Below are positions 1,617-27,863 of a DNA stretch of 32,253 nt, one piece after another (the stretch's first letter is position 1; the number at the start of each line of letters is the position of its first letter). The stretch lies in assembly GCA_016932095.1 (NCBI GenBank), contig JAFGDN010000076.1:1-32253 (forward strand), written 5' to 3'. Below the pieces are notes generated by a model. It was not told the DNA's origin and searched no databases. It worked only from the letters and a program-made list of their open reading frames with translations. Source of the DNA: Sedimentisphaerales bacterium. Lineage in GTDB: Bacteria; Planctomycetota; Phycisphaerae; Sedimentisphaerales; Anaerobacaceae. The position numbers and the translations under genes were made by a program.

Positions 1617-1627
1617 ATTTCCCCCGC

Positions 1628-2164: not shown

Positions 2165-2186
2165 AATGGTTTCTCTCGCCATTTGG

Positions 2187-2684: not shown

Positions 2685-2837
2685 CCAACATTTATCATTA
2701 TAGGACCCGGAAATCGCTACAAACCGGGGCACACCCCCATACTGGCCTTTAATAAAGTATAAAAACTAAACCAAGATTACTGTGTCGAAAATCAAGTTGA
2801 TATAACAGATTATCTCAGCTTAAAGTTCGGTTCATAT

Positions 2838-6973: not shown

Positions 6974-7038
6974 CCTTTTGGTCCAGAGCCGATGGTTAAT
7001 ATAATCCAAGAACTAAACATTGTTGGAGATAGTTGGCA

Positions 7039-8913: not shown

Positions 8914-9569
8914 ACCGTAAGGACCTCCAAAACACTCTTATAGAAATGAAACGATTGTATGAATCCGACCCCAAGAAAGCTGTTCGGAGTCAAGAAATGA
9001 TCAAATTATTGCACGATTTCTCTGTGCAAGAATTAAAACGGCTTGGTATTTCCGAAAAAGAGGTCACAATAAGAACTGAGGCAAGGATATTTGGTTCGCA
9101 TAAGCCGAAGGAAGTAGATGTAGCTGTGATTCATCCTCAAGCCGGACCGCTTATTGTTATATCCCTGAGAAGTCAAATGAGCTCAATCGAAAAAAACTTT
9201 GCTAATTACTATGAGGGTATAATAGGAGATGTTATTAGTCTGCATGGAAAGTATCCTGACTTGGTAATAGGTCAAATATACCTTCTTCCAAAAAGGACAA
9301 TAATAAAGGACAAGAACGGTCATACGCGTAAGGAGTCACACGATCTTGAGAAAAAAGAACCGCTCTTTCTCCGAATCGCTAATCGTAAAAATGGGACAGA
9401 CAGAATGGATAAGTATGAACATGTGGCATTCTTGGCAGTAGATTTTTTGAAAAACCCACCCGAAGTTCTGGATATTCCGAAAGACCCAATCCTTCGAATA
9501 GAAGATTTCTACGACAAGCTACTTGCAACTTACCAAGAAAGAAATCCATTCTTGGATATCTTGGAGTAG
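8904..9569 (+). CDS. Putative restriction endonuclease partner of RM unit 1
   Basis: 221 residues, overlapping the methyltransferase end by 10 bp. Seen: KEVDVAVIHP (Asp72) and the strand PLIVISLRSQMSS (about residues 82-94), followed by KNFANYYEGIIGDV and LVIGQIYLLP. This fits a PD-(D/E)xK-type fold in which the usual ExK strand is replaced by an S-L-R-S-Q form that I recall from other restriction endonucleases (memory, not checked). Position and overlap are the main evidence that it is the cognate nuclease. Recognition sequence unknown. Confidence 0.65.
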   Translation: MPIDRKDLQNTLIEMKRLYESDPKKAVRSQEMIKLLHDFSVQELKRLGISEKEVTIRTEARIFGSHKPKEVDVAVIHPQAGPLIVISLRSQMSSIEKNFANYYEGIIGDVISLHGKYPDLVIGQIYLLPKRTIIKDKNGHTRKESHDLEKKEPLFLRIANRKNGTDRMDKYEHVAFLAVDFLKNPPEVLDIPKDPILRIEDFYDKLLATYQERNPFLDILE

Positions 9570-11731: not shown

Positions 11732-12880
11732 ATGGCTGAAGGATACGTAGTTACGACCAAGGCATACACCACCGAGAATATGGGAACGCTCAGCATTTAT
11801 GATTTGCTTTACTATTTCGAGAAAAAAGGCGCGATGCGGGTATCCGACCTTCACATCAAGGTCGGTATGCCGCCTGCGTATCGAATCGACGGTGACATAA
11901 CTTATCTCAAAGGCCCGCCCATAACGGCCGACGTCGCCCAGAAGCTCATATTCCCGATTCTCAGCGACGAACATCTCCAAAAGTTCCAGAAAGAGGACGA
12001 CATCGATTGCTCATACCGCATGGGAACGCTGCAGTTCCGTATAAATGTCTTTCACGAAAATGACGGTATAAGCGCAGCGATTCGGGCGCTGTCGCTGGAT
12101 ATTCCAAAAGCCGAATCAATCGGCTTTCCCAACAACGTCTGGGAGGATATCGTCGAGTGTAAGCAGGGGCTTGTCCTTTTGACTGGCATTACCGGGGCGG
12201 GCAAATCAACGACTATCGCGTCATTGATAGGCCGTATAAGCGAGAAAAAGGCCTGCCGGATTATCACGCTCGAAGACCCAATCGAATACCTTCTGCCAAA
12301 TAATCATTGTATGATTTCGCAGCGGGAGGTCGGCAGGGACGTAAAATCATTCAACTCAGGCCTTCGGGCGATGCTGCGGGAAGACCCCGACGTGATAATC
12401 GTCGGTGAGATGCGAGACCCCGAGACCATATCAATGACCCTTATGGCCGCCGAAACGGGACACCTGGTTTTTTCGACCCTGCATACAAGGGACGCGACCG
12501 GAACGATTACGCGGGTGCTTGATTACTTCCCGTCGAGCAGGCAAAACGAGGTCCGCAACCAGCTTTCGCTGGGTCTTGTGTATATAATTTGCCAGAAGCT
12601 CATACCGCGAAAGGACGGCACCGGCCGAATCGCCGCGATGGAAATCCTCAACAATAATTACGCCTGCGCGAACCTTATAAGGGTTGGTAAAATCGAGCAG
12701 ATTTACTCGCAGCTTCAGACCAAGACACGTCTGATACCCGATGAAAAAATGACGACGCTCGAAAGACACCTCGCTACGCTGGTAAAGCAGGATAAAATCG
12801 ACCTGCTCGAAGCAAAGAAGTGGGCCAACGACCTTAAATCTTTTGTGGACGAAATGCAGGCCGGCCGCAAACAGCAATGA
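11732..12880 (+). CDS. PilT/PilU-type twitching motility ATPase
   Basis: 382 residues. PilT-type hexameric ATPases power pilus retraction at the inner membrane. Visible: SDLHIKVG (38-45), Walker A GITGAGKST (152-160), the Asp box ITLEDPIEY, Walker B VIIVGEMRD (221-229) and the His box GHLVFSTLHT. The length is slightly above the ~345-370 of classic PilT, with a short N-terminal extension and a 30-residue C-terminal helical tail. An AGGAGG five bases before ATG 11732 settles the start. Its stop overlaps the next gene (ATGA). A second, diverged PilT gene converges on this operon from the other side (13794-14888). Confidence 0.92.
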   Translation: MAEGYVVTTKAYTTENMGTLSIYDLLYYFEKKGAMRVSDLHIKVGMPPAYRIDGDITYLKGPPITADVAQKLIFPILSDEHLQKFQKEDDIDCSYRMGTLQFRINVFHENDGISAAIRALSLDIPKAESIGFPNNVWEDIVECKQGLVLLTGITGAGKSTTIASLIGRISEKKACRIITLEDPIEYLLPNNHCMISQREVGRDVKSFNSGLRAMLREDPDVIIVGEMRDPETISMTLMAAETGHLVFSTLHTRDATGTITRVLDYFPSSRQNEVRNQLSLGLVYIICQKLIPRKDGTGRIAAMEILNNNYACANLIRVGKIEQIYSQLQTKTRLIPDEKMTTLERHLATLVKQDKIDLLEAKKWANDLKSFVDEMQAGRKQQ

Positions 12881-13779
12881 CGATACAGTTCAAATGCCCC
12901 AAATGCGGTTCGCTGATTGCCTTTGCCGACAGGCACGCGGGCAAACCGGCGAAGTGCCTGACCTGCGGACAAAAACTGATAATACCCCAAAAAAGCGAGC
13001 AGGCCCCGCAAACAATCGAGCCGCCGCAGGAGCCCGAAGCGCCGCTGACGGGTTTTTACCGAGCAGTGTTTTTTGAAAGCTGGAAAATCTTTTTCGACAG
13101 GGACAATTTGACCGGGCTTGTTTTTGTAGCCGCGGCGGTGTGTTTCAAGTTTTTCACGGCGGGCTCCTGCTGCCTGGGTTTGTTTGTGTATCTTGCCGCC
13201 TGGGGTTACCTGTTCGGATTTTATCTGAAGATTATTTGCGAGACCGCTTTGGGCAATGATAAATTTCCTGAAATCGATGTTGGAACGGGCATAGATTTTG
13301 CGTGGTATATGTTAAAGCCGATTCTCGTTTTCGGGGCAACGTTGTTTGTCGTGGAGTTGCCGTTTTATGCTGCTGCGTGGCTATTCGGCAGAGGCGATGC
13401 AACGCTGCAAAGTTTGCGGCAGCGAGGCGATATGACTGACTGGTTTCTGATTTCTTTGTTCGCCGCCGGCCTGATTTTGTTTCCGCTGGCGATTTTGAAG
13501 GTCTCAATGATGGAAGAAATAACCTCACTGCTGGAATTAAAACGCTTCTTTACTCCGGTCATTCGGGCGTTTTTCCCGTATTTGACGGTTGTTGCCATAC
13601 TTGCCCTTGCCTGCTATATGGAGACCGTAACAGAGCAATATGCGCCTATGGCAAGGGAGACGGCAGGAACAATCACGGGCAAGCTGTCTATGAACCTGCT
13701 TGAACAGGTCGTCGCGATTATCTCGATGCGGACGATAGGGCTTTTTTACAGGCACTTCGGCTGTTTTTTCGGTTATTGA
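12877..13779 (+). CDS. Zinc-ribbon multi-pass membrane protein
   Basis: 300 residues. Four cysteines (7, 10, 27, 30) form an N-terminal zinc ribbon of the kind common in planctomycete proteins (FKCPKCGSLIAF...KCLTCGQKL). After a Pro/Glu linker come about five hydrophobic segments (around 75-100, 104-125, 150-172, 190-210, 230-250) and a cytosolic-looking end, similar in layout to DUF4013-type membrane proteins (not certain). The start overlaps the stop of the PilT-like gene by 4 bp, implying coupled translation and perhaps a role with the pilus motor. Function unknown. Confidence 0.7.
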   Translation: MTIQFKCPKCGSLIAFADRHAGKPAKCLTCGQKLIIPQKSEQAPQTIEPPQEPEAPLTGFYRAVFFESWKIFFDRDNLTGLVFVAAAVCFKFFTAGSCCLGLFVYLAAWGYLFGFYLKIICETALGNDKFPEIDVGTGIDFAWYMLKPILVFGATLFVVELPFYAAAWLFGRGDATLQSLRQRGDMTDWFLISLFAAGLILFPLAILKVSMMEEITSLLELKRFFTPVIRAFFPYLTVVAILALACYMETVTEQYAPMARETAGTITGKLSMNLLEQVVAIISMRTIGLFYRHFGCFFGY

Positions 13780-13793
13780 GATTGCCTGGTTTT

Positions 13794-14888
13794 TTAAGAC
13801 GGCTCGTTGTGACGCTCTGTCTGGTTGTGAATTCTCTTTCTCATCTCGCCCGGGTCGTGAGAGTAATTGACGGCCGAATCGTAGGTTATTTCTCCCGCCT
13901 CGTATAGTTCTAAAAGGGAGTCCTCCATCAGGTGCATACCGGTCTTTCGCCCCATTTGAATAACATTGATTAAAAGGTGCAGCTCATGGTCGCGTATATG
14001 CCTCCTTGCCGCGTGATTCATAATCAATAGTTCCGTCGCGATAATCCGGCATTTTCTGTCGGCCGATGGAATAAGCCGCTGGGCAATGACCCCCTGAAGC
14101 GAGCTGGCCAACTGGGCAAAAATCTGCGGCTGCTGATTTTCCGGAAATATCGAGACGATGCGTTCGACCGTCTGAAGGGTGTTGGGCGTATGGCAGGTAG
14201 CGATGACCAGGTGTCCCGTCTCGGCGGCGACAAGGGCCGTGGCGGTTGTGTCCATATCCCTCATCTCGCCGATACAGATAACGTCCGGGTCCTGGCGAAG
14301 GACGTGGATTAGGGCGCTGCCGAACGACTTTACGTCGGTGTATAACTCCTGCTGGATGATGATGGCCTTCTTGGGCCTGTGAACGTATTCGACAGGATCC
14401 TCAATGGCGATGATTTTACACCGCCTTTCGCTGTTAATCAGGTCAATCATATAGTTCATCGTCGTTGTCTTGCCCGTGCCCGTGGGCCCCGTTATCAAAA
14501 CAAGGCCGCTGGACAGCCGCGTGAAATCCTCGAGCTGTTCGGGAAGCCGAAGCTCGGCACGCGTTTTAATGTGGTCCATAACGGGCCTGATGGCCATCTC
14601 GGGATTGCTTACGCGGTAATAAACCGAGATGCGGAACCGCCCCAGCTTGTCGTCAAATACCGAGCAGCATATCTGCCATTCGCGTTCAAAAACTTTTACC
14701 TGTTCTTCATTAAGCAGGTCGTAACAGAGTCGTTTGGTGTCTTCCCTCGTAAGCGGGGGCATATTAGTCAGCATAATTTCGCCGCCTATCCTGAACAATG
14801 GCGGCAATCCCGCTACGATATGAATGTCAGATGCGTTTTCCTGCCTGGCCGCCGCAAGTATGCGTTGAATCTCACCGGATACAACCAT
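13794..14888 (-). CDS. pilT: PilT-type pilus retraction ATPase
   Basis: 364 residues. Seen: ASDIHIVAG (19-27), Walker A GPTGTGKTTT (134-143), the Asp box IAIEDPVEYVHRP, Walker B VICIGEMRD (203-211) and the His box GHLVIATCHT. It is closer to canonical PilT than the paralogue at 11732. It is the last gene of the long minus-strand operon, 3 bp after the TPR gene, and converges on the zinc-ribbon membrane gene with only 14 bp between the stops. No obvious terminator is visible in that gap. Confidence 0.92.
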   Translation of the reverse strand: MVVSGEIQRILAAARQENASDIHIVAGLPPLFRIGGEIMLTNMPPLTREDTKRLCYDLLNEEQVKVFEREWQICCSVFDDKLGRFRISVYYRVSNPEMAIRPVMDHIKTRAELRLPEQLEDFTRLSSGLVLITGPTGTGKTTTMNYMIDLINSERRCKIIAIEDPVEYVHRPKKAIIIQQELYTDVKSFGSALIHVLRQDPDVICIGEMRDMDTTATALVAAETGHLVIATCHTPNTLQTVERIVSIFPENQQPQIFAQLASSLQGVIAQRLIPSADRKCRIIATELLIMNHAARRHIRDHELHLLINVIQMGRKTGMHLMEDSLLELYEAGEITYDSAVNYSHDPGEMRKRIHNQTERHNEPS

Positions 14889-14891
14889 AGT

Positions 14892-15656
14892 TTATCTTCC
14901 AAAAAATTTACTGAAAAATCCTCTCGCGTTGAATTTTTTTAACGCCTCATCCGCCGCGGCCCAGTCGGGGCGCAGCTTCAGGGCCTGCTCAAAACTGGCT
15001 TTTGCTTCGGGCCTGCCTAATCCCGCCTGGCAGCATCCAAGCTCATACCAGGCAAGAGCCGATTTAGGCAGCTCATCGACGAGTGTTCGCAGGAATTGCA
15101 TTGCAAAGGCGTAGTCGCCGTTTTGATTGAGCAGCCGGCCCGCCTGCAAACGAATTATCAAACCTTCCTCGCCGCAGGCCGCCGACACGGCCTTGCTGAT
15201 ACAATTCTGGGCTATGCTGCTTTTGCGACTGAGCATCACCTCCGCCCGTGCCAGCCAGACCCTCGCGGTAACGTTTTCCTTGGTTATCGATTCGTCGGAA
15301 TATGCGATTGCCTTTTCCATTCTTCCGTCGCGTGCGCAGGCAACCGCCTTTGCCGATAAAAGCTCCGGATGCTCTGGGAACATCTCGAGCGCCTTATCGA
15401 CCCATACGGCCGCTTCCTTGTATTCACCTAATTCGATAAGCATCTGCACCTGCCCGAGCCAGCCGGGATAAAAAACGCTGTTTTGCTCCAGCGCACGCGA
15501 ATAATTCCGCAACGCCACCTCAAAATCGCCCGCAAGCCAGTATCGAAGTGCCTGCTTGTGGAAATACTCTGCATCCCGAATATCTTCCCCGGCCGGTGTT
15601 TTTGCAGACCTCTCATCGCGTTTGTCGCCAAATTCAAGATTTGAAAATCTCATCAT
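14892..15656 (-). CDS. TPR protein of the Ycf46-like operon
   Basis: 254 residues. Degenerate TPR units (AEYFHKQALRYWLAGDFEVAL, ALEMFPEHPELLSAKAVA, ASFEQALKLRPDWAAADEAL) fill most of the protein; no signal peptide. ATG 15654-15656 is favoured because GAGGA lies seven bases upstream and it overlaps the preceding stop (ATGATG). An upstream ATG at 15698 would lie inside the previous gene. Position between the pseudo-signal-peptidase and pilT suggests a scaffold role in the same envelope system (inference). Confidence 0.75.
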   Translation of the reverse strand: MMRFSNLEFGDKRDERSAKTPAGEDIRDAEYFHKQALRYWLAGDFEVALRNYSRALEQNSVFYPGWLGQVQMLIELGEYKEAAVWVDKALEMFPEHPELLSAKAVACARDGRMEKAIAYSDESITKENVTARVWLARAEVMLSRKSSIAQNCISKAVSAACGEEGLIIRLQAGRLLNQNGDYAFAMQFLRTLVDELPKSALAWYELGCCQAGLGRPEAKASFEQALKLRPDWAAADEALKKFNARGFFSKFFGR

Positions 15657-16693
15657 TGCGCCGTCCTCAGGAAACCTCGCCTGCCGAGAGGCAGCCATCG
15701 CATAACTGCCTTTGCCTGTATTTCTGATACACCCACTAATAAAGCACGTTCGACAAGCTCTGTGTTCATAACCGCGTTGCCTCGAATCACAACATTATAA
15801 TCGTCGCTGATAAAATATGTATCGTTTGGAACCTGAACGGGTTTTATTTTGCCGGTTATCCATTCGGGAACAGGGATTTGGTTACTATCTATCGGCTGAC
15901 CATTGACGATAAAAGCGCGACCGGCAATAAGGATTGTATCGCCTGAAAATCCGACTATCTGGCCTGCCATAATCGGCCCATTTCTGATTACTGGTCCGCT
16001 GCCGCCTCTTATGACATTCCCTGCCCGAACCAGAACGAAATCGCCTCGATTTAAATTAGCCGGCTGTGATAAACTGCGCCTGCCCAGGAGCAAATCACCG
16101 TTTTGAACGTTCTGAAAGGGTATCGCCAGATTAGAATGACCGAAGACAAATTCACTGAAAATGGTGCTTCGAATACCCCAGTAGGCAAACCCTATGGCTG
16201 CCAGCAGGATTGTCAGCGTTCCGAATTTCCTCGCGGTTTCGACTATCTCCCTTAACAGGGTGTGCTGAAAGGCAATCCAGCCGTGAAGTCCGACCGCAAT
16301 ACCGAGTAATAAAAGCCCCATATTACCGCCGTAAAGAGATATCCCGGCGAGCAGGGCTAAAAACCAGCCGAGAACAAACCAGCGAACTTCGCGAAATCTG
16401 CCGTCAATATAATGCGCAAGTCCCGGGACTATCGACAATATAAGGCCGACAAATGTTTCTTTGGACATTATCCTCATAAAAGCCGGCACTTTCACTTTAG
16501 GCCTCGGAAGCTCCTCGGGTGCGACGCTGTGAAGACGAAACCAGCGTAAAAGGGAACGTAAAGGCCTCTTCCAGGGGGGCATTCTCGGCGGGTGAATATC
16601 AACGACGACGCCTGCGCCGCCCAGAACGGAACCGCACTTAAAACACCGGCTTTCGCCGGGAATGTTCTCAAACTGGCATCGCTGGCATCGCAT
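15653..16693 (-). CDS. Zinc-ribbon membrane protein with degenerate signal-peptidase-I-like (S26) domain
   Basis: 346 residues. The N-terminus has a four-Cys zinc ribbon (Cys3, 6, 17, 20). Three or more membrane helices follow (about 78-150 and 160-180). The C-terminal half resembles S26 signal peptidases in order: NGDLLLG, RGDFVLVRA, QIVGFSGD, FIVNGQPID and YFISDDYN, matching the family's boxes C, D and E. The Ser of box B is not at its place (NLAIP) and the Lys of box D is replaced (AGQIVG instead of KRxVG), so it is probably a non-catalytic pseudo-protease. It starts 10 bp after the DUF2997 gene. Function unknown; the similarity is my reading and needs a profile search. Confidence 0.65.
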   Translation of the reverse strand: MRCQRCQFENIPGESRCFKCGSVLGGAGVVVDIHPPRMPPWKRPLRSLLRWFRLHSVAPEELPRPKVKVPAFMRIMSKETFVGLILSIVPGLAHYIDGRFREVRWFVLGWFLALLAGISLYGGNMGLLLLGIAVGLHGWIAFQHTLLREIVETARKFGTLTILLAAIGFAYWGIRSTIFSEFVFGHSNLAIPFQNVQNGDLLLGRRSLSQPANLNRGDFVLVRAGNVIRGGSGPVIRNGPIMAGQIVGFSGDTILIAGRAFIVNGQPIDSNQIPVPEWITGKIKPVQVPNDTYFISDDYNVVIRGNAVMNTELVERALLVGVSEIQAKAVMRWLPLGRRGFLRTAQ

Positions 16694-16703
16694 CCCGGAC
16701 CTG

Positions 16704-16913
16704 CTACTCGTCGTTCAGTTGCTGGTGAAGGTCGATTTTCGATTTGACTTCCGGCTCGTAGTATTCGCTTGTCAGCTTCTGCTCCCTGACCGAGCCGACA
16801 ATCTTACTGAGCCACTTGGCATATTCGAGGCATCCCTTGCCTTTGACTCCCTTGATGTGCACTTTAACCTCGCCGGTTTTTGAAATCACTATTTCGACAT
16901 CGTGTTGTGCCAT
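16704..16913 (-). CDS. DUF2997 protein
   Basis: 69 residues: EIVISKTGEVKVHIKGVKGKGCLEYAKWL is the DUF2997 pattern (E-I-x-I-x-x-x-G-x-V and a C-x-x-x-x-K step). DUF2997 proteins are small partners encoded with DUF1257 and Ycf46-like AAA ATPases; their biochemical role is not established. It lies 4 bp after the DUF1257 gene. Confidence 0.8.
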   Translation of the reverse strand: MAQHDVEIVISKTGEVKVHIKGVKGKGCLEYAKWLSKIVGSVREQKLTSEYYEPEVKSKIDLHQQLNDE

Positions 16914-16917
16914 TTGT

Positions 16918-17394
16918 TTAATCCACCCAACGCCTTACGTTTATTCGTATGCTCTGGTCTTCCATAACTTCTTCGTTGACCGTTTGGAACCCTTTGTTCT
17001 TCAGCTCCGTGGCGACGCGGTTGTAAACGAAACACTGCGCCATCTTCTGTGCAAACTGTTCGGCAATCTGTTTAAGCTCCGCCTTTGTTTTGCCTTTGCC
17101 TTTGGCGCAGACCTTGCACCGGCCTCGTTCGTCCCGGCTGACGCTAAGCTCGATATCGCCTTTTGTGACGACAATTTCCTTCTCTTTGGCGAGGTTTTGA
17201 GCGACGACTTCGCTCTTGGCAAGCTCCACCTCAACTGTCTGCTCTGTTGCCTGCGTCTGCTGGGCAATATCAATATCCTGCTTAACGCTCTGCTTGACCA
17301 CAAGCCCCAGCGCAGACGCGGCCCCCGCGACTGCGGCGACAATCGTAGGCCAACCGGCAACTATAGCGGGCGTCAGGATTACTACTGCACTCAT
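16918..17394 (-). CDS. DUF1257 (Ycf35-like) protein with hydrophobic N-terminus
   Basis: 158 residues. The C-terminal part (KAELKQIAEQFAQKMAQCFVYNRVATELKNKGFQ and an ending SIRINVRRWVD) fits the DUF1257/Ycf35 family, whose members end in a conserved I-x-L-x-V-x-x-x. The first 33 residues are hydrophobic, a possible membrane anchor not usual in the family. RCKVCAKGKGK supplies one Cys pair. AAGGAG lies upstream of ATG 17394. It sits between the AAA ATPase (31 bp upstream) and DUF2997, the typical order of this conserved trio. Confidence 0.75.
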   Translation of the reverse strand: MSAVVILTPAIVAGWPTIVAAVAGAASALGLVVKQSVKQDIDIAQQTQATEQTVEVELAKSEVVAQNLAKEKEIVVTKGDIELSVSRDERGRCKVCAKGKGKTKAELKQIAEQFAQKMAQCFVYNRVATELKNKGFQTVNEEVMEDQSIRINVRRWVD

Positions 17395-17425
17395 ATCCGG
17401 CTCCTTAACCTTTTTTCATATTGTC

Positions 17426-19039
17426 TTATATTTCGAGCTTGCGCTTGTCGGCCCCGGGTTCGGCGGCTATCGCGTCGCTGGTTGCCCGCCTTGCCCGTCC
17501 TTCAGCCCATTTGCGCAAACCATCCACTTCCTCGCTCATCGTCTTTGAAAGCGGCACCGTCTGGCCGATGCTTTCTAACAGTCGCTGGGTCGTTATCGGC
17601 TGTTTTTCATAGAAGGCGTCGAACATCGAGCTGATTATCGCCTCCTCAATTTCAGCGCCGCTATAGCCCGAACAGGCACGTGCAAGGGCGTCCATATCGA
17701 ATGACGCCGGGTCGATTCGCCGTTTCTTCAAATGAATGTCGAGTATCGCCCTTCGCTCCACAAACGCCGGCAAATCAACGAAGAAAATCTCGTCGAATCG
17801 CCCTTTTCTCAGAAGTTCAGGCGGCAGCATTGAAACGTCGTTGGCTGTTGCGACAACAAAAACGGGCTTGTTTTTTTCAGATAACCACGTCAGGAACGCC
17901 CCGAATACGCGGGCGGAAGTTCCGCTGTCAGTGCTTGCGCCGCTGCCGCGTGAGCCGCGGAAGGCCTTGTCAATCTCGTCAATCCAGAACACAACCGGCG
18001 CCACCGATTCGGCTACCTTGATTGCCCTGCGAATATTCTGCTCAGATGAACCTACCAGCGAGCCGAATACCTTCCCTACGTCAAACCGCAAAAGAGGCAG
18101 TTTCCAGGTGTTGCTGATTGTTTTGGCCATTAAGCTTTTTCCACACCCCTGCACACCCAGCAGTAATACCCCCTTGGGGGCCGGAAGTCCGAATTGCCGC
18201 GCCTGGTCGGTAAACGCCACGGAACGCTTAAGAAGCCAGCTTTTAAGGGCATCGAGTCCCCCGACTGATGACAGGTCTTCCTCGGCGTCGTAATATTCCA
18301 AAAGACCGCTTTTGCGGATAATCTGACGCTTCTCGTTGTAAATAACATCCAAACTCTTTTCACCTAAGCTGCGATGCTCAACCAGCGTTTTTGCCAGGAC
18401 GTTTTCCGCCTCGACGAGGGTAAGCCCAAGAAGGGCGTGCACGATTTGCTCCCGCGTATGGTTGTCTATGGCTACGTTTAATTTGGGATTTCCCTTGACC
18501 TCGTCGATGATTCTTGTCACAAGCGCAGCGAATTCCTTTTCTCCCGGCAAATCGAAATCCACTACCGTCAGGTCTTTCTCAAGCTCCGCCGGCAGCTCAA
18601 ATATGGGGCTTGCGATTATAATGGTTTTATATGTGTTCTGCATCGTTGAGGAGACCTCGCGAAGCCGGCGGATGACCGCCATATTCTGCCCCTTGAGGAA
18701 CGGGTGAAAATCCTTGAAAACGTAAAGGGCCGGCTCAACGTGCTCAATAACGTTATCCAGCGCAACCAGAGGGTCCTGTGTGGCAGTATCCCTGTGCTTC
18801 TGGGATTGAACCTGTGTCCCGGCAGGCACAAGACCCGTCGTAACAGACCACTCGAATACCCCTTTACCCAGGCGTGAGCCGATTTTCATTACGTGCCTGA
18901 GAAGCCGTTGCTCCTCCCAGGTAATCACGTAAACAAGCGGATACCTGGCGCGAATAAGGACCTCAATTTCGCTCATTTTCTTAGCGGCTGCCTCGTCATC
19001 GGGCCGGCCTTTCGGCTGCGTTTCTTTAGGTTCGGGCAT
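17426..19039 (-). CDS. Ycf46-like AAA+ ATPase
   Basis: 537 residues. The N-terminal half (about 22-240) is the Ycf46-specific region ([32 protein letters not shown]); the AAA+ core follows with Walker A GVQGCGKS (295-302), Walker B FWIDEID (351-357), the sensor-1 ATAND and Arg-finger segment [16 protein letters not shown]. Ycf46 homologues in cyanobacteria and plastids have roles linked to photosynthesis or carbon response; here there is no photosynthesis, so the target is unknown. ATG 19037-19039 (MPEPKE) is preceded by GAGGG; the longer frame to 19165 duplicates the coding of the small upstream gene. It overlaps that gene by 14 bp. Confidence 0.88.
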
Positions 19040-19202
19040 TTTTTTTATCCCTCGTTTTGGGCGGTAAAAGTGTATTTTCAGGGTCAAGCTCGCCTGCGAT
19101 TGCCAAAAGCTCGTCGTCAGGCGCAAGCAATGCGACCCTGCCGTCCGCCAGGACGCGTATTTCAAAGTCGCCGCATTTTCGCCTGTATCGTTGCTTCTTC
19201 AT
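19026..19202 (-). CDS. Small conserved-context protein, 58 residues
   Basis: ATG at 19200-19202 overlaps the radical SAM stop (ATGA) and the frame ends in TAA at 19026-19028, overlapping the AAA gene start by 14 bp. The product starts MKKQRYRRKC, carries a GDFEIRVLADGRVALLAP strand pattern and ends in a charged tail with DKKNART. Coupling on both sides and host-like codon use argue that it is real. I do not recognise the family; it may be a small adaptor of the AAA ATPase (inference). Confidence 0.65.
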   Translation of the reverse strand: MKKQRYRRKCGDFEIRVLADGRVALLAPDDELLAIAGELDPENTLLPPKTRDKKNART

Positions 19203-20029
19203 CGTATCAGCGTAAGACCTTTTTCCTCTGCCAAATGCTCAGCTTGTTCAAGCTCATCCGGCTGCAAATATCTCAACGGCGCCTCCCCGTCCTGTGCCGG
19301 CGGCACGTAATTTCCTCTCAAGCTCACCTTCACGCTCGGCAGTTCAGCCGACAGCCAGTTCAGAATCGGCCTGACGCAACAGTCAAAATGGCCCGGCAGC
19401 AACAAATGCCGGACAATTACGTCGCAATTCTGCGAGGCATTGATAATGTTTCGTTTCACTATTTCCATATAATCCTCGCAGCCGAGCAGCCGGCGGGCAC
19501 AGTCGTTGTTGCCGCATTTGGTGTCGGCAAGGCAGATATCCATAAGGCCAGTCATAAGTTCATCGACTATATCATTATAATACATATTCGAGTTCCAAAC
19601 CACCAAAGTTGAAGCATCAAGCCGGCCCAGCAGTTCGAGAATGCCGGGTATGCTGACCGCCGGCTCGCCGCCCAGAAGGTTAAGGTTTTTGGCGCCGCTG
19701 CTTTTACGTCTTTTTATTGAGGCGATGAGCCGCTCTAAATCCATTATTTCCGCCGATTCGGGCTGCTCGTTCCATTCGGCCACTGAGCAAAACTCACATC
19801 TTAAATTGCAGCCGGCAAAATAAACCTGGTGCGAAGGGTTTAATTCCTTCTCTTCGCCCCAGTGCAGCACATCACGGTAGCACCTGACGCTTGAGTCGAG
19901 TTTGCAATATCCTTTTTGTCCCGAAACCCGGTCAACACCGCAGTTTCGCGGACAAAGCTGACAGTGCCGTATCGCCTTTCTGGCGAGTTCTGCCCGCCGG
20001 GGGACTTGAATATGGGCCGCCGGATTCAT
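19199..20029 (-). CDS. Radical SAM protein, PflX-like (COG1313)
   Basis: 276 residues. The radical SAM cluster motif CNLRCEFC (Cys74, 78, 81) binds the 4Fe-4S cluster that cleaves S-adenosylmethionine. Upstream cysteines CQLCPRNCGVDR and GYCKL (residues 23-42) are typical of the PflX/AmmeMemoRadiSam-like group annotated as pyruvate formate-lyase activating enzyme homologues. LLGGEPAVSIPGILELL matches the GGEP motif. No glycyl-radical enzyme is nearby, so its substrate is unknown. It follows the pseudo-rhomboid by 4 bp and overlaps the 58-aa gene. Confidence 0.87.
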   Translation of the reverse strand: MNPAAHIQVPRRAELARKAIRHCQLCPRNCGVDRVSGQKGYCKLDSSVRCYRDVLHWGEEKELNPSHQVYFAGCNLRCEFCSVAEWNEQPESAEIMDLERLIASIKRRKSSGAKNLNLLGGEPAVSIPGILELLGRLDASTLVVWNSNMYYNDIVDELMTGLMDICLADTKCGNNDCARRLLGCEDYMEIVKRNIINASQNCDVIVRHLLLPGHFDCCVRPILNWLSAELPSVKVSLRGNYVPPAQDGEAPLRYLQPDELEQAEHLAEEKGLTLIR

Positions 20030-20033
20030 AATT

Positions 20034-20699
20034 TCAATCTATATCAACAAAGCTTCCCGGTTTATATCTGTTCGGCAGGTTATTTTTGACAGACGCGCTG
20101 ATTCGCCATCTCAGCTTGACGTAAAGATACGCCACAAGCGCACCCGATACCCAAATCCACGTTATTGGCTGCGGTATTCCGAGAACAATCCCGATAACGA
20201 TAAGCCCCCACGTAATATACTGAGCTTCCACCGCCCAGAACAAGGCAAGAACTCTCCTTTTCCTGTGAAGCAATCCGAATACCGCGATTAAGCCGTATGC
20301 GCAGGAATCCGACCCCAGGCCGATATAGTTTTTACCGAGTAACGCGCTGATGGAAATCCATATAATTCCGCAAACAATGCAAACAACCAGCCAGAGCAAA
20401 ATGAACGAGCCGGTTCGCCATTCACGCTCGACGGCGCTGCCTATGAACAAAATCAGCAAACCGTCTAAAATCAGCGTTACAGTGCACGTGTTAAAAAACG
20501 GGTAGGTTACCAGTTGCCATATCCTGCCGCGCAAAATACCCTGGAGGGATAACGCAAGATAATTGAACGTAAAACCAAGCGCGTAGTGAAGCAGCGTCCA
20601 GCCGGCAACGAGCAAAACGAGGATGATGGTGACCGCGGGGGTAAAAAGCTTTTTGGGTGACGGCAGCGCCCACTCGATGCGTATTTCGTCTTCCGCCAT
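20034..20699 (-). CDS. Rhomboid-like membrane protein lacking catalytic Ser and His (pseudo-rhomboid)
   Basis: 221 residues with about six membrane helices. The frame of the rhomboid fold is visible: GRIWQLVTYPFFN (WR motif region), GSAVEREW, then GLGSDSCAYGLI where active enzymes have GxSGxxYGL, and WIWVSGALVAYL where they have AHLGGALAGFL. Aligned this way the catalytic Ser is Asp and the catalytic His is Trp; the HxxxN helix also lacks His and Asn. It is therefore probably an inactive rhomboid relative that binds or escorts membrane proteins, as iRhoms and derlins do (inference). First gene of the operon; GGAAGG lies upstream of ATG 20699. Confidence 0.75.
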   Translation of the reverse strand: MAEDEIRIEWALPSPKKLFTPAVTIILVLLVAGWTLLHYALGFTFNYLALSLQGILRGRIWQLVTYPFFNTCTVTLILDGLLILFIGSAVEREWRTGSFILLWLVVCIVCGIIWISISALLGKNYIGLGSDSCAYGLIAVFGLLHRKRRVLALFWAVEAQYITWGLIVIGIVLGIPQPITWIWVSGALVAYLYVKLRWRISASVKNNLPNRYKPGSFVDID

Positions 20700-20746: not shown

Positions 20747-20776
20747 AGTATAGCTTTAACGACCGGAAAATGCCAA
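20747..20776 (-). promoter_or_regulatory. Promoter of the nine-gene Ycf46-like operon
   Basis: On the minus strand TTGGCA (20771-20776), an 18-bp spacer and TATACT (20747-20752), each five of six to consensus, about 50 bp before the pseudo-rhomboid start. Confidence 0.6.
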
Positions 20777-20777
20777 G

Positions 20778-20812
20778 AAAAAAGGGCCTTACGCACATCT
20801 GCGCACGGGCCC
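20778..20812 (-). terminator. Rho-independent terminator upstream of the operon promoter
   Basis: Minus-strand hairpin with GGGCC/GGCCC base and TGCGCA/TGCGTA upper stem (20784-20812), followed by six T. It abuts the -35 box and would insulate the operon from transcription coming from the ThyA side. Confidence 0.65.
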
Positions 20813-20849
20813 CAACTCGGAAAGAAACTTATATGGTTTTTCAAAATTT

Positions 20850-21173: not shown

Positions 21174-22052
21174 TTATCCCTTTGCTTTGGCGAACCAGTC
21201 GGGGTCCTTGGCCAGCTTTTCACGTGTCTCCCGTGTCATCATCTCAAATACCGGATGAGTGCTTTCCCAGGCGCGTTTGGTGAAGGGGCTTAACCGCATT
21301 TTTCCTATTTCACGTGAAACGTCGTTGAAGTAGCTGCCGTAAATGTGCAGTGAGTCGCTTATGTCAACGTATCTGCCGACGGCGACGTTTTTTTTGATGT
21401 TCTGCGAAATCTTTTCGGCTATGGTCCTTTGCAGGTCGGTCAGCGCATAAACGTTCATAAACCACGCCTTGTATAAATCCCTGCTGCGCCAGTGGGTATT
21501 CATATTAAGCACAAATCCTGAGGCGCCATCGCTTATGAGTCGGCACCATATCCTTTGCAGGCAGGGCGGGTCGTCGGTGGCCGGGTCTGCCGTCGGCATC
21601 CAGGTGAGCGCCTGCGCCCTTCGGGTATGCGTAACCTTCGACAGGGCGTCAATGATGTATTGTATCTGGTTGACTTTTTTGAAGGGCTTTTTGGTATTCG
21701 GGTTCCTGATATCCTCGACGGGCGAGTATCCGAACAGCCGTTCGTGATAGGTATAGGTCCATTTTCCCGCCGCAGGGTCAATCCAGTGGTCGTGAATCCC
21801 GTCAATCACCTCCTGCCGGTATGATTCAAGCTCCACAGGCCCGCCGGGGAAATTTTTGTGAATCCTCGGCTCAGCAAAGGGATTAGTTATCGTTACCATA
21901 ACCGTCGCGTCTTTGCTCGGCGGGTCCCCCGGCCGGTCATACTGGGTCTTTATATCTAATCCGTTGTCCCAAACCGCCAGCACCGCCTTTTCCCACGCCT
22001 CCGGCAGACAACCAGCCGTGAGCGCTATCACCGGAAAATTTCCGTCTTTCAT
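21174..22052 (-). CDS. Thymidylate synthase-family protein (ThyA or pyrimidine hydroxymethylase-like)
   Basis: 292 residues. The nucleotide-binding Arg pair (Arg144-Arg145 in THTRRAQALTW), the catalytic-Cys motif PPC (162-164 in ADPATDDPPCLQRIWCR), MNTHWRSRDLYKAWFMNVYALTDLQ and SDSLHIYGSY follow the order of ThyA-family motifs. The family methylates dUMP or, in some branches, hydroxymethylates dCMP or dUMP. The divergence from bacterial ThyA is large, so the exact substrate is open. AAGGAG precedes ATG 22052. Codon use is GC-rich like the host, unlike the AT-rich RM genes immediately upstream (19 bp), so it is probably resident rather than part of the RM unit. Confidence 0.8.
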   Translation of the reverse strand: MKDGNFPVIALTAGCLPEAWEKAVLAVWDNGLDIKTQYDRPGDPPSKDATVMVTITNPFAEPRIHKNFPGGPVELESYRQEVIDGIHDHWIDPAAGKWTYTYHERLFGYSPVEDIRNPNTKKPFKKVNQIQYIIDALSKVTHTRRAQALTWMPTADPATDDPPCLQRIWCRLISDGASGFVLNMNTHWRSRDLYKAWFMNVYALTDLQRTIAEKISQNIKKNVAVGRYVDISDSLHIYGSYFNDVSREIGKMRLSPFTKRAWESTHPVFEMMTRETREKLAKDPDWFAKAKG

Positions 22053-22071: not shown

Positions 22072-22902
22072 TTACAACTTGGGTGCCTGTTCAGAAGGCG
22101 GTTCTATGCCGAGGAATTCTCTATAAATTCTTTCACGATATCCCTTGCCAATTTCATTTACCGCTTCAATAAAAGATTGATAGGTTCCTAAACCGCCGAT
22201 TTTCTCCCAGAATTCGTTACCGATAAGGATTACCTCATCATGTTTCATATCAAACCATCTTGCAGGAAATTTCCAGTCATAATCCTCTCGTCGTTTATAA
22301 GGATTATAAGGCAAAGCGTAATAAGCAGCATCAACTTGCAAGGGTTCCATGCTATAGAGTTTCAATATCTTTTCTTTACTAACTTTGGTTTGGTCGCTGT
22401 TGGGAAGTGGCGCTTTAAGTTCAAAAGCATATTTTTTCTTATTCTTTGTATCCTCGGCATAAACATCGCATATTACTGTAACGGGTATTTTATTTCCCCC
22501 GCCTCGTAGAACGTAATCTAATTCTTTTTTCCAATTTGGCCGGATTCTTTCATCCCCCTTTTTCCCATGCTCCAAACTATTTAAAATCTCAGTTATTCTC
22601 CTAAGCCGTTCAGCCCGCACAACACCATTTATTTCATACCCTTGCCTCCCTAATCCTAATCCCTCCGTAGCAGCAACTACAGCAAGTTTCTCCCACACAC
22701 TACCAAATGGGGTAACAAATCTTCTTTCAAAATGAGCACCTTTAAATATCTCGTCGGGAACGAGCATGGCATAAAGTGGTTTCGCAGCGTGATGCTCATC
22801 CTTTTTAAAGGGGTCGGTTATGAGCACTTTATTCATAACCCTATCCATCATTTCTTTAATAACGGCCTGTATCGCAGATTTCATTCGAGCAGAATTTGGC
22901 AT
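22072..22902 (-). CDS. TdeIII-family type II restriction endonuclease
   Basis: 276 residues. The pattern VPDEIFKGAHFERRFVTPFG near residues 50-70, YAFELKAPLPNSDQTKVSKEK with the catalytic ExK (Glu-Leu-Lys), and YYALPYNPYKRREDY then VLIGNEFWEKIGG match TdeIII-type nucleases as I remember them. Such enzymes cut unmethylated DNA; TdeIII-like specificity (GGNCC) is only a guess. ATG 22902 follows AAGGAGG at nine bases; the TTG at 22908 is too close to it. It is 19 bp after the methyltransferase gene, in the same operon. AT-rich codon use. Confidence 0.8.
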   Translation of the reverse strand: MPNSARMKSAIQAVIKEMMDRVMNKVLITDPFKKDEHHAAKPLYAMLVPDEIFKGAHFERRFVTPFGSVWEKLAVVAATEGLGLGRQGYEINGVVRAERLRRITEILNSLEHGKKGDERIRPNWKKELDYVLRGGGNKIPVTVICDVYAEDTKNKKKYAFELKAPLPNSDQTKVSKEKILKLYSMEPLQVDAAYYALPYNPYKRREDYDWKFPARWFDMKHDEVILIGNEFWEKIGGLGTYQSFIEAVNEIGKGYRERIYREFLGIEPPSEQAPKL

Positions 22903-22921
22903 TAACAAAATCCTCCTTTAC

Positions 22922-24160
22922 TTAAGGTTTTCTCCAAATAAAAACGGATTCAAAAAATTCACCTGCTCGCCGACCTGTACGTCGATTGACATGACGTTGG
23001 ATTACTCCCTCGACTGTAACATTAAGGATTTCAGCAATCCCGCTATATAAATCAGAACGGTCATGAGCTACAATAATGAGATGTCGGCCTGATGGCATAG
23101 AGTCAATCGCTCTTTTGAATACCGTTGCAATATCCCGCTTATAATCCTCTTTCGCTTTAGGACTCCTACCTTTACGAAAAGACCCAATTTCATTAGAGGC
23201 ATTTTCAGGCATCCCTAATAAATGGTAACTGTAAGCATGTTGTTCATGATAATCAATCAATCCAACATACGGGGGACTGCTAATAACGCCATGTATGGGA
23301 GGAATATCTGCATTGCGACTATCTACGTTGTAAACATTAACAAAAGCATCTGTCCGTAATTTTGCAAACTGACCGATTCGTTCTAAGGTGTCGATACTGT
23401 ATCTGTAAAGAAATTTATAGGCTTCTTCAGTCGGGGAGCATGTTCTTGAATGTTTATAACACCAATATGGTTCTGTTTGGGGGTGCTTTGGAAAATCTAA
23501 ATCAAAATGAGTGGTAAGCCGGGCTGATCTTGCAGAACGAGATAGTATTACACGATGTAAATCTCCATATTCATATTCACCGGTATTAATGAGGTCTCTA
23601 TACGTCAATAATTCAAATAAGGTTTGTGGAGCAAACCACTTATTAAGATAAGAATCTTCAGTATGAACTTTGTTTTCATGGTGTTGAGAATTTTTTTCAA
23701 ATAGTGACTCACTCGATTTGTATGAATGTGTTGTCTTTCTGACTTTTTGAAGAATGTCCATAACTTCTTTATGGGCTTTGGCTAAGTCGTACTTGGCAGT
23801 TTTGACTTTGCAAAGTAGAACATTGAAGGCCGAAATATCATATCCAATTGAATTGATTCCAAGCTCATTTGCCTGGATTAAAGTTGTTCCTGAACCAACG
23901 AATGGATCAAGGATAGTTTCGCCTTTTTTGAAGTACTTTCGAAGGAATATTTCAACAAGTTGAGGTATAAATTTCCCTAAGTATGGATGAAGACGGTGAA
24001 CATGTTTAGTTCTTTGCGCCTCTGGCAAATCTCTCTCTCGCCAATTTAGATTTAAGCTTTCTAAAGGCGTGTTGTGTTTTACCTCGCTCGGAACAGTCGG
24101 TATATTGCTGTCGTCAGAGTATAGCGTTACACGCTTTTCCGTATTTGTTAACATAACCAT
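22922..24160 (-). CDS. DNA methyltransferase of RM unit 2
   Basis: 412 residues. Motif I LDPFVGSGTTL (about 84-94) and catalytic motif SSPPYVG (294-300) place it among amino-methyltransferases; SPPY favours N4-cytosine (inference). The preceding HVHRLHPYLGKFIPQL also occurs in a related form in the methyltransferase at 26708. ATG 24158-24160 has GAGGA eight bases upstream; a TTG at 24175 overlapping the previous stop would add five residues. It lies between the zinc-cysteine gene and the TdeIII-like nuclease and should protect against the latter. Confidence 0.85.
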   Translation of the reverse strand: MVMLTNTEKRVTLYSDDSNIPTVPSEVKHNTPLESLNLNWRERDLPEAQRTKHVHRLHPYLGKFIPQLVEIFLRKYFKKGETILDPFVGSGTTLIQANELGINSIGYDISAFNVLLCKVKTAKYDLAKAHKEVMDILQKVRKTTHSYKSSESLFEKNSQHHENKVHTEDSYLNKWFAPQTLFELLTYRDLINTGEYEYGDLHRVILSRSARSARLTTHFDLDFPKHPQTEPYWCYKHSRTCSPTEEAYKFLYRYSIDTLERIGQFAKLRTDAFVNVYNVDSRNADIPPIHGVISSPPYVGLIDYHEQHAYSYHLLGMPENASNEIGSFRKGRSPKAKEDYKRDIATVFKRAIDSMPSGRHLIIVAHDRSDLYSGIAEILNVTVEGVIQRHVNRRTGRRAGEFFESVFIWRKP

Positions 24161-24171
24161 CAAATGATTCC

Positions 24172-25290
24172 TCAACAGTTTTTTTCTTTTTGGTTTCTTT
24201 CTTCATTAAGTGCATCAATGATAGATGCTGTTGGATACCATACTTTGAAATGTTCGTTCAATCTATTTTTTTTAATTAATATTTTTACGGTTTTTTCTTT
24301 TGCTACGCATCGATAATGATATCGCCGATTACCCTTTGTTAATTTGGGGATTTTGCCAAAAAAGATTATATCTTGACATCGGCCTTTATTGAAATACTTA
24401 CAGTTTTTACATTTAAAAGGATTTGGCTTCGAAATCCCTTCTGAGTAAGTTTTTATAACTTGATCACAGTACGTAATCCATTGCTGGCATTTAGGACATC
24501 TGAAAGGTTGATCATTATCAAGTTCTGCGGTTATAGTGGGTATCGAAGTTGTTGTGATGAAATTGGTGTTTTGACCTTCTTTTAAAGAACCAACCTCGAT
24601 CCCAAAAATGCGACCATCATTTTTAAGCACAAGAAAATCCGGAGGAGCGATGAGTCCCCCTTTGGTAATCAATCTTTGATGAAGAAGTAGTGGTATCACA
24701 AAACCAAATCTGCAGTGGATTAAATAAAGATAAATTAGAAATTCGATTGCTAGCCCCCTGGATTTGGGGAGAATCGAATCCATGATTTTGTAAAATTCTG
24801 TCCCTTTCTTATCCCATATTATGGGGCCGTTGTAAGCTTTCAACTGTTTTATTTTGGTTTTTTGCTCATCGTCCTCAAAAAAATTCGGTATCCTATGAGA
24901 TAAAAGCGCATTGAGAAGCCCTTTTCTAAGCTTTGGGTCAACGGATATATTTTCTTGAAGAAGCAATTTATTCGAAATCCTCATAACGATTTCTATAAAA
25001 GCTTTCCGATGAACATCCGAGGCTTTTAAGACATAGAAACCACGACCAAACACAGTATAAGTCAGCAAATCTGCGAGGGTCATTCCTCGGTGAAAGCGAT
25101 TCCCTTTTCCAAGGTGGCCGTCTTTTCTGCCGCCAGCATAAAGCTCCCGGGCGAATTCATCATAGAATCGTCCAAGTTTCTCAAGTCTTTCTTCATTTCG
25201 CGCGTATGCAGGAACCTTTTTAATAAAGAAATTCTCTATTGTCTTTAAGTGCGTTACTGCTTGAGCTAATCTGTCAAGAACCTTCTTCAT
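24172..25290 (-). CDS. Unassigned RM-unit protein: degenerate PD-(D/E)xK-like core with six cysteines
   Basis: 372 residues, not recognised. PPDFLVLKNDGRIFGIEVG (residues 216-234) looks like a PD-(D/E)xK nuclease core with Asp218 and Glu232 but Gly where Lys is expected. It is followed by cysteines at 265, 268, 275, 294, 297 and 305, likely one or two zinc sites. The N-terminal 200 residues are helical and Lys/Arg-rich. It is the first large gene of RM unit 2, upstream of the methyltransferase, whose start region it touches. It could be a second nuclease subunit, a nicking enzyme (Vsr-like role) or a specificity factor. AT-rich. A GGGA eight bases before ATG 25290 supports the start. Confidence 0.6.
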   Translation of the reverse strand: MKKVLDRLAQAVTHLKTIENFFIKKVPAYARNEERLEKLGRFYDEFARELYAGGRKDGHLGKGNRFHRGMTLADLLTYTVFGRGFYVLKASDVHRKAFIEIVMRISNKLLLQENISVDPKLRKGLLNALLSHRIPNFFEDDEQKTKIKQLKAYNGPIIWDKKGTEFYKIMDSILPKSRGLAIEFLIYLYLIHCRFGFVIPLLLHQRLITKGGLIAPPDFLVLKNDGRIFGIEVGSLKEGQNTNFITTTSIPTITAELDNDQPFRCPKCQQWITYCDQVIKTYSEGISKPNPFKCKNCKYFNKGRCQDIIFFGKIPKLTKGNRRYHYRCVAKEKTVKILIKKNRLNEHFKVWYPTASIIDALNEERNQKEKNC

Positions 25291-27856: not shown

Positions 27857-27863
27857 TATAACG

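What the first reader, a model, noticed from the sequence alone, without database searches (positions are those of the whole stretch)
13794..20699. Nine-gene operon coupling a Ycf46/DUF1257/DUF2997 module to membrane pseudo-proteases, radical SAM and PilT
Genes overlap or lie a few bp apart (largest gap 31 bp) behind one good promoter and an insulating terminator. The AAA+ trio is known as a conserved but functionally unexplained module. Here it travels with a PflX-like radical SAM enzyme, a 58-aa protein, two membrane proteins resembling proteases without catalytic residues, a TPR protein and a pilus motor. This may be an undescribed envelope protein-remodelling or pilus-linked machine.
Basis: partly seen in the sequence, partly recalled or inferred. 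Interest (0 to 1): 0.75.

Follow-up and report, generated by a model that had tools for sequence, protein, structure and literature searches.

The report
Conserved AAA–PilT membrane operon with tag
A block of nine genes keeps the same order across very distant planctomycete bacteria; it probably encodes one machine that joins a protein-remodelling ATPase of unknown purpose (also found in photosynthetic microbes) to its own pilus-type motor, and one of its proteins begins with a short tag that may be how the ATPase recognises partners.

Summary
The order rhomboid-like, radical SAM, 58-aa protein, AAA, DUF1257, DUF2997, signal-peptidase-like, TPR, PilT is exact in 12 other genomes of the same order (one contig ends before PilT). 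The core radical SAM–AAA–DUF1257–DUF2997–S26–TPR–PilT recurs in other Planctomycetota families wherever contigs allow (one exception). The operon's PilTs form one clade (99/97) apart from the other PilTs of the same genomes. Three congeners lack all nine genes cleanly, so it is a discrete accessory cassette. The S26-like protein has the signal-peptidase fold without catalytic Ser/Lys; its closest solved relative by shape is SipA, a pseudo-peptidase needed for streptococcal pilus assembly. New here: every operon TPR protein starts with RFxxLE (25/25), unique in each genome, and neighbours of this AAA in other phyla carry the same motif at their ends, in unrelated folds; a held-out Planctomycetota set agrees, viruses do not. 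Best reading: a Ycf46-type remodelling ATPase recruited by the RFxxLE tag of the TPR adaptor to a dedicated PilT and a pseudo-protease membrane scaffold. Binding and function remain inferred.

The parts
20034..20699 (-). Rhomboid-like membrane protein (pseudo-protease), 221 aa, C-terminal tail GSFVDID
   Evidence: TIGR03902 21.9 bits, below cut-off. Active-site His replaced in all Phycisphaerae copies and Ser in most; intact GASG/AHVGG in L156. Tail F-x-D-x-D/E conserved.
19199..20029 (-). Radical SAM enzyme, PflX/PflA-like, 276 aa
   Evidence: PF04055 44.1 bits over cut-off. CxxxCxxC in all 19 aligned, with further N-terminal Cys in nearly all.
19026..19202 (-). 58-aa protein, predicted hairpin-helix, invariant G11 E14 R16 L18 G21 P28 D29
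   Evidence: Conserved in 12 loci; distant copies upstream of AAA in L154, L155, L177; similar to DUF2997 and DUF1257 middle against controls.
17426..19042 (-). Ycf46-type AAA ATPase, 538 aa
   Evidence: PF00004 101 bits. Walker [27 protein letters not shown] kept in all aligned loci. 47-49% identical full length to cyanobacterial proteins.
16918..17394 (-). DUF1257 (Ycf35) protein with a strongly hydrophobic N-terminal segment, 158 aa
   Evidence: PF06868 24.1 bits against 22.2, C-terminal 42 residues only; alignment A2; model mean pLDDT 62.6.
16704..16913 (-). DUF2997 protein, 69 aa, invariant C28
   Evidence: PF11211 52.1 bits against 24.1; alignment A4.
15653..16693 (-). Zn-ribbon plus membrane helices plus signal-peptidase-I-like domain without catalytic residues, 346 aa
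   Evidence: Model pLDDT 82.2; Foldseek to SPase I, highest TM by target SipA 4n31 0.63; no Ser/Lys in any relative that has the region; C3 C6 C17 C20 invariant.
14892..15656 (-). TPR protein beginning MMRFSNLEF (RFxxLE tag); start corrected from 15698
   Evidence: TPR_16 55.3 bits; RFxxLE in 25/25 operon TPR proteins; the only M-x-RFxxLEF start in this genome; start.
15633..15650 (-). Codons of the RFxxLE tag (RFSNLE)
   Evidence: Pattern match ATGATGAGATTTTCAAATCTTGAATTT at 15630-15656; M, M, then RFSNLE, then F.
13794..14888 (-). Dedicated PilT-family ATPase, 364 aa
   Evidence: TIGR01420 382.7 bits over 319.1; operon PilTs one clade, 99/97 support.
20772..20830 (-). Terminator-like hairpin of the upstream gene, insulating the operon
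   Evidence: MFE -24.5, z -3.75, followed by UUUUUU.
20747..20776 (-). Promoter-like site TTGGCA-18-TATACT
   Evidence: 10 of 12 matches; a consensus match only.

Best explanation
The nine genes encode one dedicated membrane-associated machine. A Ycf46-type (p97-like) AAA ring, assisted by the small proteins DUF1257, DUF2997 and the 58-aa protein, is brought to its target by the RFxxLE tag at the N-terminus of the TPR protein. The TPR protein bridges it to a dedicated PilT-type motor and to a membrane scaffold made of two proteases that have lost catalysis: a Zn-ribbon S26 protein that binds but does not cut, as SipA does, and a rhomboid-like protein. ATP hydrolysis by the AAA would remodel or recycle the PilT-coupled assembly or its membrane clients; the radical SAM enzyme would modify one component. 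Shown: the unit and its conserved order, the dedicated PilT clade, loss of catalytic residues, signal-peptidase fold, conserved ATPase motifs, and the tag's conservation, uniqueness and recurrence. Inferred: tag-AAA binding, TPR bridging, the pilus or envelope target, and the radical SAM role.
For: Exact order in 12 other genomes of the order (L144's contig ends before PilT) and the core in other Planctomycetota families. PilT clade 25/25, 99/97, excluding other PilTs of the same genomes. Distance matrices of seven proteins correlate 0.70-0.94. Clean absence in three congeners. S26 model resembles SPase I and SipA; SipA lacks Ser/Lys and is essential for pilus assembly (PMC4049620). RFxxLE in 25/25 TPR proteins beside a variable linker, unique per genome. 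In other phyla 18 terminal hits near AAA against 0-6 for 23 permuted motifs, in NHL, SNF2, Zn-ribbon and contractile-injection-linked proteins. Held-out Planctomycetota AAA loci: 4 C-terminal hits against at most 1. [quoted passage not shown]
Against: No PilB, PilC or pilin gene is in the operon, so the pilus link rests on PilT alone. The RFxxLE motif is not enriched beside this AAA in viral contigs, and the C-terminal cases are largely one homologous family. No interaction was computed or measured. DUF1257 model confidence is low. The matrix correlations include shared organismal ancestry. The p58 and rhomboid genes are missing or unrecognised in most loci outside the order. L180 carries DUF1257-DUF2997-S26 without recognised TPR and PilT.
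Confidence: 0.45

Rival explanations
1. Envelope protein quality control or insertion, unrelated to pili: the AAA extracts or remodels membrane proteins presented by the pseudo-proteases, and the PilT-type ATPase has been recruited as a second motor.
For: No other pilus gene in the operon; pseudo-proteases often bind clients (general knowledge); a ycf46 mutant affects an extracellular enzyme in Synechocystis.
Against: The PilT scores as true PilT/PilU (TIGR01420) and the genome holds several two-domain PilC/GspF-type proteins.
Confidence: 0.22
2. Type IV pilus accessory operon: PilT is a retraction motor for one of the cell's pilus systems and the other genes tune its assembly.
For: PilT family match over cut-off; pilin-like genes on the same contig (420-2732); about 14 T2SSE-type ATPases in the genome.
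Against: The operon PilT is not linked to PilB/PilC; congeners lacking the operon have the neighbouring second PilT.
Confidence: 0.15
3. Peptide maturation system: the radical SAM enzyme modifies the 58-aa protein, and AAA and membrane proteins export it.
For: Radical SAM and 58-aa genes overlap and are adjacent.
Against: Most conserved residues of the 58-aa protein lie in a predicted hairpin-helix like DUF2997, there is no leader-like region, and the core operon occurs without a recognisable 58-aa gene. The radical SAM protein resembles activases more than peptide maturases.
Confidence: 0.08
4. Anti-phage defence system: an accessory cassette at a variable site close to restriction-modification genes.
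For: Patchy distribution (15 of 392 genomes), insertion at a variable site, type II restriction genes at 22072-24175.
Against: PADLOC gives only generic AAA (IetA), radical SAM (viperin) and T2SSE (mad8) cross-matches; the AAA module is widespread in cyanobacteria; the restriction genes are a separate block of lower G+C (0.38 against 0.52).
Confidence: 0.07
5. Coincidental adjacency of unrelated genes.
Against: Conserved order across the phylum, PilT clade, unit-wise absence in congeners.
Confidence: 0.01

Closest known systems
Cyanobacterial DUF2997-ycf35(DUF1257)-fed7 cluster and Ycf46 (PMC4284462, PMC7496141)
   Same: AAA of the same full-length family, with DUF1257 and DUF2997
   Different: Cyanobacteria pair DUF1257/DUF2997 with a ferredoxin; here they sit with radical SAM, two pseudo-proteases, TPR and PilT, and DUF1257 has a hydrophobic N-terminus
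SipA, pseudo-signal peptidase of Streptococcus pyogenes pili (PMC4049620, PDB 4n31)
   Same: Signal-peptidase fold without catalytic Ser/Lys, Gly common at the Lys position, coded with a pilus-type system
   Different: SipA serves sortase-built pili; our protein adds a Zn-ribbon and several membrane helices; sequence similarity is weak (E 7e-4)
Type IV pilus retraction motor PilT/PilU (TIGR01420)
   Same: Family match above cut-off
   Different: A separate clade that travels with the AAA module, not with pilB/pilC
Cdc48/p97-type AAA remodelling ATPases
   Same: AAA module is closest to Cdc48/p97 in the PDB; adaptors recruit p97 to clients through short motifs (established knowledge)
   Different: One recognisable AAA module, small bacterial partners, and an RFxxLE tag not matched to any p97 motif I know
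Contractile-injection-type clusters of spirochaetes (L095)
   Same: Contain a close relative of this AAA with DUF2997 and an RFxxLE-ended protein
   Different: Tail sheath and other tail genes in place of PilT and TPR

Membership tests
Ycf46-type AAA ATPase | Full-length similarity to the cyanobacterial protein | tested here: inconclusive
   47-49% identity over residues 25-522 with cyanobacterial loci; that these are the protein named Ycf46 rests on length and literature, not on an annotation I read.
Ycf46-type AAA ATPase | Active AAA motifs (Walker A/B, sensor 1, Arg finger) | tested here: met
   Conserved in all aligned operon loci.
DUF1257 (PF06868) | Score over curated cut-off | tested here: met
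   24.1 against 22.2 bits, C-terminal part only.
DUF2997 (PF11211) | Score over curated cut-off | tested here: met
   52.1 against 24.1 bits, whole profile.
Signal peptidase I (S26) | Signal-peptidase fold | tested here: met
   Model pLDDT 82; Foldseek E 1.6e-5, probability 1.00.
Signal peptidase I (S26) | Catalytic Ser and Lys | tested here: not met
   No Lys at the general-base position in any sequence that has the region, and no Ser at the nucleophile position by motif alignment.
Rhomboid protease | Catalytic Ser-His dyad | tested here: not met
   His replaced by W/Y/D in all members of the order and in L177; Ser absent in most.
PilT/PilU (TIGR01420) | Score over curated cut-off | tested here: met
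   382.7 against 319.1 bits.
Type IV pilus system | PilB, PilC, pilins and secretin in the same cluster | tested here: not met
   None among the nine genes; PilC-like and PilB-like genes exist elsewhere in the genome.
Radical SAM superfamily | CxxxCxxC cluster motif and family score | tested here: met
   CNLRCEFC; PF04055 44.1 bits.
IetAS anti-phage system | IetA with its partner IetS | tested here: not met
   Only AAA-domain cross-match to IetA; no partner match among the operon proteins scanned.
SipA-like pseudo-peptidase chaperone | Binds a client needed for pilus assembly | not testable with these tools
   Fold and loss of catalysis match; function needs experiment.

The most novel reading that the evidence does not exclude
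RFxxLE (often followed by F/I/L and an acidic residue) is a general docking tag for Ycf46-class AAA ATPases, placed at the N- or C-terminus of otherwise unrelated partner proteins in several bacterial phyla; in Planctomycetota it plugs the ATPase into a PilT-driven membrane machine.
Probability: 0.55. Interest if true: 0.85.

Novelty: new variant of a known kind. Interest (0 to 1): 0.72.

Why it matters
Ycf46, Ycf35 (DUF1257) and DUF2997 are conserved from red-algal plastids and cyanobacteria to many bacteria, with no agreed biochemical role. This operon gives them a fixed set of partners, including a motor and two membrane proteins with recognisable folds, and a short motif that can be tested by changing a few residues. 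If RFxxLE is the docking tag, the partners of this ATPase in other organisms can be read from genome sequence, which would make a long-standing question about its role directly testable.

Tried and rejected
Local adjacency: rejected. Defence island: PADLOC gave generic cross-matches only. DUF1257 fold search: no significant match (E at best 0.04, model pLDDT 62.6). An iterated DUF1257 profile drifted onto out-of-frame alanine-rich ORFs inside the AAA gene, so its hits near +1100 were discarded. RFxxLE in viral loci: 3 terminal hits, no better than permuted motifs. A control motif RL..EF seemed as frequent until most of its hits proved to lie inside the AAA gene; with those excluded it falls to 3. 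58-aa homology to small ORFs in Omnitrophota is suggestive only (E 5e-4 for a single pair; not found at E<1 by profile search). The Chloroflexota survey with the S26 profile was not accepted by the tool.
Full report
Anatomy. Nine minus-strand genes fill 13794-20699: rhomboid-like (20034-20699), radical SAM (19199-20029), 58 aa (19026-19202), AAA (17426-19042), DUF1257 (16918-17394), DUF2997 (16704-16913), S26-like (15653-16693), TPR (14892-15656) and PilT (13794-14888). The TPR start is best placed at 15656, giving an ATGA overlap and a protein beginning MMRFSNLEF. A terminator-like hairpin with U6 separates the operon from the gene upstream, and a promoter-like site precedes the first gene. 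Family assignments are from Pfam and NCBIfam.

Conservation. I fetched AAA relatives from whole genomes and from GTDB species contigs and mapped the window's proteins on them. The order rhomboid-radical SAM-p58-AAA-DUF1257-DUF2997-S26-TPR-PilT is found in 12 loci of the order other than the window, or 11 to 12 genomes (L062, L063, L064, L142-L149; L065 is the same contig as L148, and L176 is the same as L063, so these are counted once; some unnamed G genomes could coincide with named MAGs). In L063 the DUF1257 gene is doubled, and in L144 the contig ends after TPR. A profile of the S26-like protein finds 15 of 392 Planctomycetota genomes. Outside the order nearly all of these have S26 between DUF2997 and TPR, then PilT, and, where the contig reaches, radical SAM and AAA upstream (L153-L155, L177-L179, L181-L185). 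L180 is an exception: DUF1257-DUF2997-S26 without recognised TPR or PilT. A Chloroflexi MAG has AAA-DUF1257-TPR-DUF2997-S26-PilT (L070).

A unit. The 25 operon PilTs form one clade (99/97; 99% of bootstrap trees) that excludes the other PilT-type ATPases of the same genomes. Pairwise distance matrices of radical SAM, AAA, DUF1257, DUF2997, S26, TPR and PilT correlate at 0.70-0.94; part of this is shared organismal history. Three congeners, all at least 91% complete, have the genes on both sides of the operon (homologues of 21174-22052 and of 12877-13779) within about 0.4 to 3 kb of each other and none of the nine genes between them. The restriction-type genes at 22072-25290 are a separate difference with lower G+C (0.38 against 0.52).

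Pseudo-proteases. The S26-like protein has an N-terminal four-Cys Zn-ribbon, membrane helices and a signal-peptidase-like domain. Its AlphaFold model (pLDDT 82) matches SPase I structures; the highest TM-score by target length is SipA of S. pyogenes (4n31, 0.63). SipA has lost Ser and Lys (Asp and Gly instead) and is essential for pilus assembly (PMC4049620). None of the relatives has Lys at the general-base position or Ser at the nucleophile position (L185 lacks the region in this alignment). The rhomboid-like protein has lost the His in every member of the order and the Ser in most, whereas L156, from another part of the phylum, keeps GASG and AHVGG beside the same radical SAM and AAA. This suggests that an active ancestor in the same operon lost catalysis. 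Its C-terminus F-x-D-x-D/E is conserved.

Small proteins. The 58-aa profile matches DUF2997 (E 3.7e-4, probability 36%) and the middle of DUF1257 (E 8.2e-4, 24%), while two control profiles give 0.26 and 0.28. These are single-pair values and modest probabilities, so common ancestry is suggested, not shown. Weak p58 matches stand upstream of AAA in L154, L155 and L177.

The tag. All 25 distinct operon TPR proteins carry R-F-x-x-L-E at the very N-terminus, each of the four residues invariant, followed mostly by F, then a variable linker. The DNA pattern for M-x-RFxxLEF has a true match once in 13 of 14 operon-bearing genomes, always at this gene; one extra match in G016 reads Ser in place of Arg; G108 has no match, its protein being read from a GTG start. 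In 14 family members that gave no operon-type AAA there is no true match: the single pattern match reads Phe in place of Leu. In AAA loci of other phyla, terminal RFxxLE occurs 18 times (8 C-terminal, 10 N-terminal), while the 23 permuted motifs reach 0-6 (a few of the 18 are probably chance, e.g. L108 and L126). It lies on unrelated proteins: NHL propellers (L074, L075), SNF2-type helicases (L083, L091, L094, L139), Zn-ribbon membrane proteins with two copies (L072, L073, and L105, which overlaps the AAA frame and is outside the count of 18), a family ending RFKxLE[FLM] in Myxococcota, Spirochaetes and Planctomycetota, one member inside a cluster with a phage-type tail sheath (L095), and once the C-terminus of the AAA itself (L109). 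In a held-out set of Planctomycetota AAA loci the motif gives 4 C-terminal hits against at most 1 for any permutation; one of the 4, L041, is the same place as L160, so 3 are new. In viral loci it is not enriched; a single Firecracker phage protein ends RFSQLEH. The common neighbour of these proteins is the AAA; DUF2997 was not recognised beside several of them, so the AAA is the likeliest docking partner. This is inference.

Mechanism. The AAA keeps its ATPase motifs and its AAA module is closest in the PDB to Cdc48/p97. I therefore propose a remodelling ATPase recruited by the RFxxLE tag of the TPR protein to a dedicated PilT motor, with the pseudo-proteases as client-binding membrane scaffold and the three small proteins as AAA cofactors. 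The radical SAM role is open. [quoted passage not shown] In cyanobacteria DUF2997 and DUF1257 travel with the ferredoxin Fed7 (PMC4284462).

Known or new. I found no paper in the held library that describes this operon or the motif; subscription papers are missing from it. The AAA/DUF1257/DUF2997 module itself is known as a conserved unit of unknown function, so I call this a new variant of a known kind, with the docking tag as the more novel claim.

Limits.

Noticed in passing
window 420-2732: Three adjacent minus-strand ORFs with prepilin-like hydrophobic N-termini (e.g. KKAFTIIEVMLAIAML), probably minor pilin-like proteins, on the same contig as the operon.
   Followed up: no
window 11732-13779: A second PilT-type ATPase and a Zn-ribbon membrane protein, convergent with the operon; both are kept in congeners that lack the operon.
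   Followed up: partly
window 22072-25290, 7033-9569, 26708-28697: Several restriction-modification-type genes around the operon; the 22072-25290 block has G+C 0.38 and is absent between the same neighbours in congeners.
   Followed up: partly
L157 (G000 contig C70): A second, 38%-identical AAA in the same genome, of a clade common in the family; a small single-span membrane protein is encoded upstream of it.
   Followed up: partly
L095 3144-11267; L133: In spirochaete MAGs a close relative of this AAA and DUF2997 lie in a contractile-injection-like cluster (Phage_sheath_1 hit in L095) whose 139-aa member ends DRFSNLEL; the related protein in L133 ends GGRFKNLEL.
   Followed up: partly
L187 (Firecracker), L186, L188: Related AAA proteins in Corndogvirus mycobacteriophages, Rhizobium phages and a streptococcal satellite phage; function unknown.
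   Followed up: partly
L156 1445-2293: Rhomboid-like protein with an apparently intact Ser/His active site in the same operon context, a possible ancestral state.
   Followed up: partly
L063 5025-6002 (also L176): Tandem duplication of the DUF1257 gene within the operon.
   Followed up: no
window 16918-17394: The first 30 residues of this DUF1257 protein are very hydrophobic (MSxVxILTPxIIxSWPxIxAAVAGAAxALG), unlike the polar start MSHFxTxKTxI of other DUF1257 proteins.
   Followed up: no
L086, L114, L116, L136: In Myxococcota the AAA-DUF1257-DUF2997 genes often follow a large protein with an FHA-like N-terminus (cluster c10).
   Followed up: no
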